From contig JAKRSH010000045.1 of assembly GCA_022402465.1 (NCBI GenBank), positions 1-64,000 on the forward strand: DNA of 64,000 bases. Reading direction: 5' to 3'. Below are positions 60,833 through 63,784 of this stretch, in pieces; within the stretch, counting starts at the first letter, position 1; each line of letters begins with the position of its first letter. Origin of the DNA: Leptospiraceae bacterium. Its GTDB lineage: Bacteria; Spirochaetota; Leptospiria; Leptospirales; Leptospiraceae. The position numbers and the translations under genes were made by a program. Below the pieces are notes generated by a model. It made no database searches and was not told the DNA's origin. It was given only the letters and a program-made list of their open reading frames with translations.

Positions 60833-61867
<1,035 letters not shown>

Positions 61868-61899: not shown

Positions 61900-62442
61900 T
61901 CAAGGAGAAAAGCGACCGACAATTTGGTCCATAGGAATCGTTCCCAAAAAACGAGAATCCATGGCCTCATCCCTATTGTCAGCCAGTAGGAAAAAGTGAC
62001 CCTGAGGAACTCGGATTTCTGCCATGCTGTCTCTAGGTGTAAATTCTGCAGGCAGTGCTGGACGTTTGTCGGTATGTTGGATGGGATAAAGTTCAGGAGG
62101 GATGACTTCACCATTTCGGAACAATGTCTTATTTTCTAAACGGATTCTATCCCCAGGGCGACCGAGAATGCGAGCAAGTAGGTAGCCTGATTCTCTCTTG
62201 GCTAGAACGATTTCTCCTAAGGGAAGATCTTTAGGATTCTGCCATTTCTGCAAAAAGGCGGAGTCTCCCATTTTCAGACTGGGTTCCATAGTTGCTGTAG
62301 AAATCTCCACTGGTTCCCAGATAAAAGATCGAATCAATAAGGCCAAGAGTCCACCTAAGACTAGACCTATAGCAAGGATGGTAAAAATTTTTTTCTTAGA
62401 GATGCTTTGCTTTTTACGTTCGGGATTGTAGGCGGATGGCAT
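61900..62442 (-). CDS. Signal peptidase I homologue lacking catalytic residues
   Basis: 180 residues from ATG 62442 (a TTG at 62478 is possible). An N-terminal TM (about 20-38) precedes an S26-type domain. The nucleophile Ser of S-M-x-P is Thr51 (ATMEPSL, codon 62292-62290), and the general-base Lys, usually in YIKRVIGLPGD, is Ala90 (LLARILGRPGD, codon 62175-62173). The box GDNRDxSxDSR reads ADNRDEAMDSR, losing Gly and Ser. The fold and the GRPGD and DSR motifs are kept. It is probably not an active signal peptidase. It lies just upstream of gap on the same strand. Confidence 0.88.
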   Translation of the reverse strand: MPSAYNPERKKQSISKKKIFTILAIGLVLGGLLALLIRSFIWEPVEISTATMEPSLKMGDSAFLQKWQNPKDLPLGEIVLAKRESGYLLARILGRPGDRIRLENKTLFRNGEVIPPELYPIQHTDKRPALPAEFTPRDSMAEIRVPQGHFFLLADNRDEAMDSRFLGTIPMDQIVGRFSP

Positions 62443-62974: not shown

Positions 62975-63784
62975 ATGAAGATACGAGTTGCATCTTCCCT
63001 CGAAGAAGTAAAGGCTCCCGTTGTTTCTTTGGTTGCGAATATTGGAACCTTGGGAATTTTCCCTGCGATCACTCGAACGTATGGTAGAGTTCAGTTTGAA
63101 CTCTACGACTCCTCCAAAAATAAAAGTATCCGAATCTTCAAATACCCAATTCAGCACAGAGAATTTAAGGGGACAACTTCTATTATTCTGGGATCATTCT
63201 TACCACTTTTCAGTGATAGATTTGATCATTCTACAAATGAGAGAAATTTTGCTATTATGCGAGTTGCCTTTCAGCAATTTGAAAATGATTTGATGCACGA
63301 ATTAGATAAAGATAAAACCCTATTAACTAAATTTACCTCAGAAACAGACAAGGTTTATGCGCTCATTCCAATTAAGAGTAAAACAATTTCAATAAAGTCA
63401 AGCGAAGAGAAGCTTCACTCAGCCCTCGAGTCCCAATTCGTTAAATCAGGGCTGAACTTGGTTGAAAGGAAAAAAATAGATGTTCTTCTTGAGGAAATTA
63501 AATTCTCGAGTACGGGCTTAACCGCTTCCAATCGAATTGAATTTGGTAAACTAAGCCAGGCTGATAGAGTGATCCTGGTGGAAGACTTAGTTATCAATGA
63601 AGGAAGGAATGCAAATAAAACAGAAATCAATTATTCCATTCGTTGTGTAGAGATTGAAACTGGCAAAATCATTTGGTCTAAAATCTCCAAATATACAAAC
63701 TCAGAGTCCAATTCTATTGACTGGCACATTGGTCTATCGGCTCGTGATATGATTTATCAATTGCAAACCAGCGGAGATATATGA
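62975..63784 (+). CDS. CsgG-like lipoprotein-type domain protein (possibly 5'-truncated)
   Basis: 269 residues from the first ATG after the decayed region. The last 130 residues resemble the CsgG/LpoB fold: LESQFVKSGLNLVERKKID, LLEEIKFSSTGL, FGKLSQADRVILVEDL and VEIETGKIIWSK. No signal peptide follows the ATG, as expected if the true N-terminus lies upstream in the broken part. It may be translated as a fragment or be non-functional. The stop overlaps the next start by ATGA. Confidence 0.65.
   Translation: MKIRVASSLEEVKAPVVSLVANIGTLGIFPAITRTYGRVQFELYDSSKNKSIRIFKYPIQHREFKGTTSIILGSFLPLFSDRFDHSTNERNFAIMRVAFQQFENDLMHELDKDKTLLTKFTSETDKVYALIPIKSKTISIKSSEEKLHSALESQFVKSGLNLVERKKIDVLLEEIKFSSTGLTASNRIEFGKLSQADRVILVEDLVINEGRNANKTEINYSIRCVEIETGKIIWSKISKYTNSESNSIDWHIGLSARDMIYQLQTSGDI

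What the first reader, a model, noticed from the sequence alone, without database searches (positions are those of the whole stretch)
61900..62442. Signal peptidase I homologue with both catalytic residues replaced
The Ser nucleophile aligns with Thr51 and the Lys general base with Ala90, while the surrounding GRPGD and DNRD-x-x-x-DSR blocks and the TM anchor are kept. Selection has preserved the fold but not chemistry, so this may be a pseudopeptidase with a regulatory, chaperone or substrate-holding role. A Thr nucleophile alone might be tolerated; loss of Lys should not be.
Basis: partly seen in the sequence, partly recalled or inferred. Interest (0 to 1): 0.7.

Follow-up and report, generated by a model that had tools for sequence, protein, structure and literature searches.

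The report
Conserved inactive signal peptidase paralogue
A Leptospira-type bacterium and its relatives keep a third copy of the enzyme that trims exported proteins; its cutting residues are gone but its shape is maintained by selection, so it probably holds or guides export signals instead of cutting them.

Summary
The 180-aa protein at 61900-62442 (-) is a type I signal peptidase homologue by Pfam, NCBIfam and predicted fold. The Ser nucleophile is Thr51 and the Lys base is Ala90. Two further residues that support the lysine, Gly272 and Ser278 of E. coli LepB, are Ala154 and Ala160. The anchor helix and the structural D/DSR residues are kept.

It is not a decaying copy. All eight held genomes of the family carry exactly three S26 genes: a long and a short one with an intact Ser/Lys site, and this third one without the lysine (Ala, Ser or Gly in 8/8). 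The orthologue in 17 genomes of the sister family also lacks it. Within a close group dN/dS is about 0.11-0.14. A tree places these in a third spirochaetal signal peptidase subfamily. Some members keep the full site; a single loss for all inactive ones is rejected.

Best explanation: a membrane-anchored, periplasm-facing pseudo-signal-peptidase that binds signal peptides or exported chains without cutting. That role is inferred by analogy with streptococcal SipA, its closest solved structure. Inactive signal peptidases are a known kind (SipA, SpsA); the new part is the deep, recurrently inactivated spirochaetal subfamily. Cleavage and binding are untested.

The parts
61900..62442 (-). Pseudo-signal peptidase I gene (180 aa, stop included)
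   Evidence: PF10502 100.8 bits, TIGR02227 107.4 bits; AF2 pLDDT 92.2 and Foldseek hits to SipA/SpsB/LepB
62323..62397 (-). Membrane anchor helix (residues 16-40), preceded by RKKQSISKKK (positive-inside, so domain faces the periplasm: inference)
   Evidence: DSSP helix 16-40 in the model; sequence
62290..62292 (-). Thr51, position of the catalytic Ser (E. coli Ser90, SpsB Ser36)
62173..62175 (-). Ala90, position of the catalytic Lys (E. coli Lys145, SpsB Lys77)
61981..61983 (-). Ala154, position of E. coli Gly272 (packs against Lys145)
   Evidence: role of Gly272 from PMC4049620
61963..61965 (-). Ala160, position of E. coli Ser278 (stabilises Lys145)
   Evidence: role from PMC4049620
61951..61959 (-). 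D162-S163-R164, structural motif (E. coli Asp280-Ser281-Arg282), kept
60833..61840 (-). gap (GAPDH), 59 bp downstream on the same strand
   Evidence: PF00044/PF02800
59640..60830 (-). pgk
   Evidence: PF00162
58894..59643 (-). tpiA
   Evidence: PF00121
58503..58856 (-). secG, same-strand gene run
   Evidence: PF03840, TIGR00810

Best explanation
It is a catalytically dead type I signal peptidase paralogue. One N-terminal helix anchors it in the inner membrane, and the peptidase-fold domain sits at the periplasmic face. Two active signal peptidases in the same cell do the cutting. The third keeps the fold and the hydrophobic floor of the peptide cleft, and most likely binds signal-peptide C-regions or exported chains without cutting, as an escort, holding or regulatory factor of export (SipA-like). 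Shown: homology, fold prediction, loss of all four chemistry residues, constant absence of Lys in orthologues, purifying selection in relatives, coexistence with paralogues that have an intact site. Inferred: orientation, inactivity, peptide binding, link to Sec export.
For: Dyad and support residues lost together: Ser90/Lys145/Gly272/Ser278 equivalents are T/A/A/A here. The eight family orthologues have none with Lys, Gly272 or Ser278, while D273, D280, S281, R282 and R146 are invariant in them. Every family genome has exactly three S26 genes; the long and short ones have S/K/G/S in 8/8 and 8/8. dN/dS is 0.11-0.14 among G004, G006, G007. Cleft-lining positions stay hydrophobic (I47, M52, L56, L80, L89; Met52 invariant in all 69 tabulated rows; cleft residues defined from SpsB, PMC4704075). 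The model is confident (pLDDT 92.2, pTM 0.83) and its closest solved structure is SipA, itself inactive. SipA precedent: Asp/Gly dyad, Gly272 to Asn, Ser278 to Arg, conserved cleft, essential for pilus assembly (PMC4049620). In the window the gene lies 59 bp ahead of gap-pgk-tpiA-secG.
Against: No binding or activity data. The residue at the nucleophile position is bulky in several orthologues (F, V, K), which may partly fill the S1 pocket. SipA itself showed no peptide binding in vitro. Gene context is not conserved: gap operon here, DUF4254-heptosyltransferase in several relatives, divergent from RNase D-HtrA in the sister family. The secG link may therefore be incidental, since gap-pgk-tpiA-secG is a common arrangement (own knowledge).
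Confidence: 0.55

Rival explanations
1. Non-catalytic subunit or regulator of an active LepB: it pairs with the long or short active signal peptidase and tunes its access, specificity or amount rather than holding substrate itself.
For: Always coexists with two active paralogues in the family. A fixed D125-x-R127 and R137-D138 set is kept in family members and in 10-11 of 11 inactive members from other families, but not in the active f1/f2 paralogues, and could be a partner surface.
Against: The same residues are kept in subfamily members with an intact dyad, so they are not specific to the inactive state. No interaction data.
Confidence: 0.25
2. Still an enzyme: Thr51 acts as nucleophile with an unusual base or with substrate assistance.
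For: Thr at 51 in the window protein; Ser kept at this position in two of eight orthologues.
Against: Orthologues carry Phe, Val or Lys at 51. The Lys is lost in 8/8. No other Ser/Lys/His is invariant near the site: K105 is the only invariant Lys, and it is also common in subfamily members with the intact dyad. Residues that pack the Lys are lost too.
Confidence: 0.06
3. Recent pseudogene or assembly error on its way out.
For: Catalytic residues lost.
Against: Open frame in 8/8 family genomes and all shown orthologue hits of the sister family; dN/dS 0.11-0.14 in a related genus; confident fold.
Confidence: 0.02
4. Envelope (LPS or lipoprotein) assembly factor not involved in signal-peptide recognition; the SPase fold is used for another ligand.
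For: In several family genomes the gene is followed by DUF4254 and a family 9 glycosyltransferase.
Against: That context is absent in the window genome, and the cleft lining remains SPase-like.
Confidence: 0.12

Closest known systems
SipA (Streptococcus pyogenes pilus assembly factor; PDB 4n31, 4k8w; PMC4049620)
   Same: SPase I fold without the Ser/Lys dyad; Gly272 and Ser278 equivalents also changed; peptide cleft kept; expected to be membrane-associated; top Foldseek hit
   Different: Gram-positive, encoded in a sortase pilus cluster, Asp/Gly at the dyad; here a diderm spirochaete with no pilus genes among the neighbours identified
SpsA (Staphylococcus aureus; listed as inactive in PMC12445088)
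   Same: Dispensable paralogue lacking both catalytic residues beside an active SPase (SpsB)
   Different: Role not stated in that source; not compared by sequence here
LepB / SpsB, active type I signal peptidases (MEROPS S26A)
   Same: Fold, anchor, D/DSR motif, hydrophobic cleft
   Different: Ser90, Lys145, Gly272 and Ser278 all replaced; two active paralogues coexist
Third spirochaetal S26 subfamily with intact dyad (loci L072, L075, L079, L084, L086, L088)
   Same: Same branch in the tree (91/85), ~175-225 aa open frames, DxR...RD marks
   Different: Retain Ser/Lys/Gly/Ser, so probably active

Membership tests
Type I signal peptidase, homology (PF10502 / TIGR02227) | Score above curated cut-off | tested here: met
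   100.8 vs 22.9 bits; 107.4 vs 47 bits
Type I signal peptidase, fold | SPase catalytic beta-domain with N-terminal anchor | tested here: met
   pLDDT 92.2; Foldseek E 2.9e-9 to 4e-8 to SipA, SpsB, LepB
Active type I signal peptidase (S26A enzyme) | Ser nucleophile | tested here: not met
   Thr51
Active type I signal peptidase (S26A enzyme) | Lys general base | tested here: not met
   Ala90; absent in 8/8 orthologues
Active type I signal peptidase (S26A enzyme) | Gly272 and Ser278 around the Lys | tested here: not met
   Ala154, Ala160
Active type I signal peptidase (S26A enzyme) | Preprotein cleavage | not testable with these tools
   needs an enzyme assay
ER-type (Ser-His) signal peptidase | His in place of Lys | tested here: not met
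   Ala90; none of the eight orthologues has His
SipA pilus assembly factor | Located in a sortase pilus cluster | tested here: not met
   Neighbours are gap, pgk, tpiA, secG and a CsgG-like gene
SipA-like pseudo-SPase (works like) | Dyad lost, cleft lining kept | tested here: met
SipA-like pseudo-SPase (works like) | Binds exported proteins or peptides | not testable with these tools
   needs pull-down or crosslinking

The most novel reading that the evidence does not exclude
Spirochaetes carry a third signal peptidase subfamily whose main job is non-catalytic: a signal-peptide-binding export factor that has shed its active site several times independently. It may be linked to the unusual Leptospira Sec system, which lacks SRP and FtsY.
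Probability: 0.3. Interest if true: 0.72.

Novelty: new variant of a known kind. Interest (0 to 1): 0.5.

Why it matters
Annotation pipelines name this protein signal peptidase I and would count it as an enzyme and a possible drug target; it is very probably not a working peptidase. If it binds signal peptides, it would be a dedicated non-catalytic export factor in bacteria reported to lack SRP and its receptor FtsY (PMC4758666). Repeated independent loss of the active site in one paralogue gives a natural series for studying how an enzyme becomes a binding protein.

Tried and rejected
Alternative Ser/Lys pair: none; the only invariant Lys in the family (K105) is also common in dyad-intact relatives. 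Conserved operon with secG: not seen outside the window genome. Single-protein scan of genome contigs found no relatives; with the alignment it gave Leptospiraceae MAGs, but no Leptospira species turned up, so dN/dS within Leptospira could not be computed. Single origin of all inactive members: rejected by the AU test (p 1.9e-5); the version without three sporadic cases is borderline (p 0.046); f1 plus f2 as one clade is not rejected (p 0.31). Independent-pairs test of Lys against Gly272/Ser278 had only 3 supported pairs, too few to conclude. Four paper searches brought up no description of an inactive signal peptidase in Leptospira; the library lacks most subscription papers. A promoter scan between this gene and gap was no better than shuffles, so co-transcription is unproven.

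Full report
WHAT WAS CHECKED. The ORF at 61900-62442 (-) is intact, ATG to TGA, 180 aa. It matches PF10502 at 100.8 bits (cut-off 22.9) and the NCBIfam equivalog TIGR02227, signal peptidase I, at 107.4 bits (cut-off 47). Against solved structures the best sequence hits are S. aureus SpsB and E. coli LepB, and the alignments put T51 on the Ser nucleophile; the SpsB alignment puts A90 on the Lys base.

In E. coli LepB, Gly272 lies against Lys145 and Ser278 stabilises it (PMC4049620). Both are Ala here (A154, A160). In the eight family orthologues neither is ever kept (A/S/C/V and C/G/A), while D273, D280, S281, R282 and R146 are invariant. The pattern is that of a site released from chemistry but not from folding. 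SipA, a solved inactive homologue, has the same four positions changed.

NOT A DECAYING GENE. Every held genome of the family (8, five genera) has exactly three S26 genes: a long one (340-384 aa open frame), a short one (185-213 aa) and this one (181-204 aa). Long and short have S/K/G/S in 8/8 and 8/8; the third has no Lys in 8/8 (A5, S2, G1), with T, V, F, F, F, K, S, S at the Ser position. The best match in 17 genomes of the sister family also lacks Lys (R, G or L). Among three related genomes dN/dS is 0.11-0.14, with dS 1.1-1.6, so the value is approximate. The Ser position drifts while Lys is always absent. That fits loss of Lys first and free drift of the nucleophile afterwards (inference).

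FOLD. AlphaFold2 on a 44-row alignment gave pLDDT 92.2 and pTM 0.83, with one helix at 16-40. The best Foldseek match in the PDB is SipA (4n31, E 2.9e-9), then SpsB and LepB. RKKQSISKKK before the helix predicts N-in, C-out, placing the domain in the periplasm (inference). Cleft-lining positions defined in SpsB (PMC4704075) correspond to V45, I47, M52, L56, L80 and L89. I47, L56, L80 and L89 stay hydrophobic in nearly all family members and M52 is invariant; position 45 is more mixed. Coordinates of the model could not be inspected, so cleft geometry was not measured.

ORIGIN. In a maximum-likelihood tree built with the catalytic columns removed, these proteins fall with a third S26 subfamily of spirochaetes (41 rows, support 91/85), apart from the long and short active paralogues; the family group has 95/86 support. 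The subfamily includes six members with the full S/K/G/S set in other families (f23, f31, f39) and inactive ones in f1, f2, f4, f5, f12 and singly in f23, f31, f41. One common loss is rejected for all 34 inactive rows (p 1.9e-5) and is borderline without three sporadic cases (p 0.046); f1 and f2 may share one loss (p 0.31). All 16 further genomes searched hold at least one more S26 gene, with an intact-looking GDN...DSR motif in nearly all of those read. Repeated loss of the site in the same paralogue suggests that its essential contribution was already non-catalytic or easily freed (inference).

CONTEXT. In the window the gene is 59 bp ahead of gap-pgk-tpiA-secG on the same strand. This is not conserved: four relatives have DUF4254 and a family 9 glycosyltransferase next, and a fifth shows the same gene pair, while the sister family has the gene divergent from an RNase D-like gene and an HtrA-type protease gene (the RNase D and HtrA names are by reading the sequences). 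Context therefore gives no firm function. Leptospira is reported to lack Ffh, FtsY and SRP RNA (PMC4758666), which makes an extra signal-peptide-binding factor attractive but proves nothing.

CONCLUSION. The protein is very probably inactive as a signal peptidase (my estimate 0.93). Its most likely work is binding signal peptides or exported chains at the inner membrane (about 0.55 together with inactivity), with regulation of an active LepB the main rival. It belongs to the type I signal peptidase fold family by homology but fails the defining catalytic features, so it should not be filed as an enzyme. The kind, an inactive SPase paralogue, is known from SipA and SpsA. The deep, recurrently inactivated subfamily in diderm spirochaetes was not found described in the papers that could be searched.

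Noticed in passing
L125, L127, L187-L197 (another spirochaete family, code f14): A 232-253 aa S26 protein keeps the Lys in 13/13 but has Thr (10), Ser (2) or Ala (1) at the nucleophile position, with Gly272 changed to Ser and Ser278 to Gly or Ala: a possible Thr/Lys signal peptidase or another pseudoenzyme.
   Followed up: partly
L036 (Anaerococcus), L043 (Mogibacterium), L033 (Zixiibacteriota): S26 proteins outside the spirochaetes that also lack the catalytic Lys (Ser/Ala, Asp/Gly, Phe/Met at the dyad), so inactive signal peptidases look more widespread than SipA and SpsA.
   Followed up: no
Sister-family genus g15 (genomes G019-G022): Four fairly complete genomes have no match to the inactive subfamily at E 1e-10 while 17 of the 18 other sister-family genomes do: a natural loss to compare.
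   Followed up: no
window 62975-63781 (+): 269-aa protein with a weak CsgG match (21.4 bits, cut-off 20.8), upstream on the opposite strand.
   Followed up: no
L028 6636-8295: In several Leptospiraceae genomes the inactive peptidase gene is followed by DUF4254 and a heptosyltransferase-like gene.
   Followed up: partly
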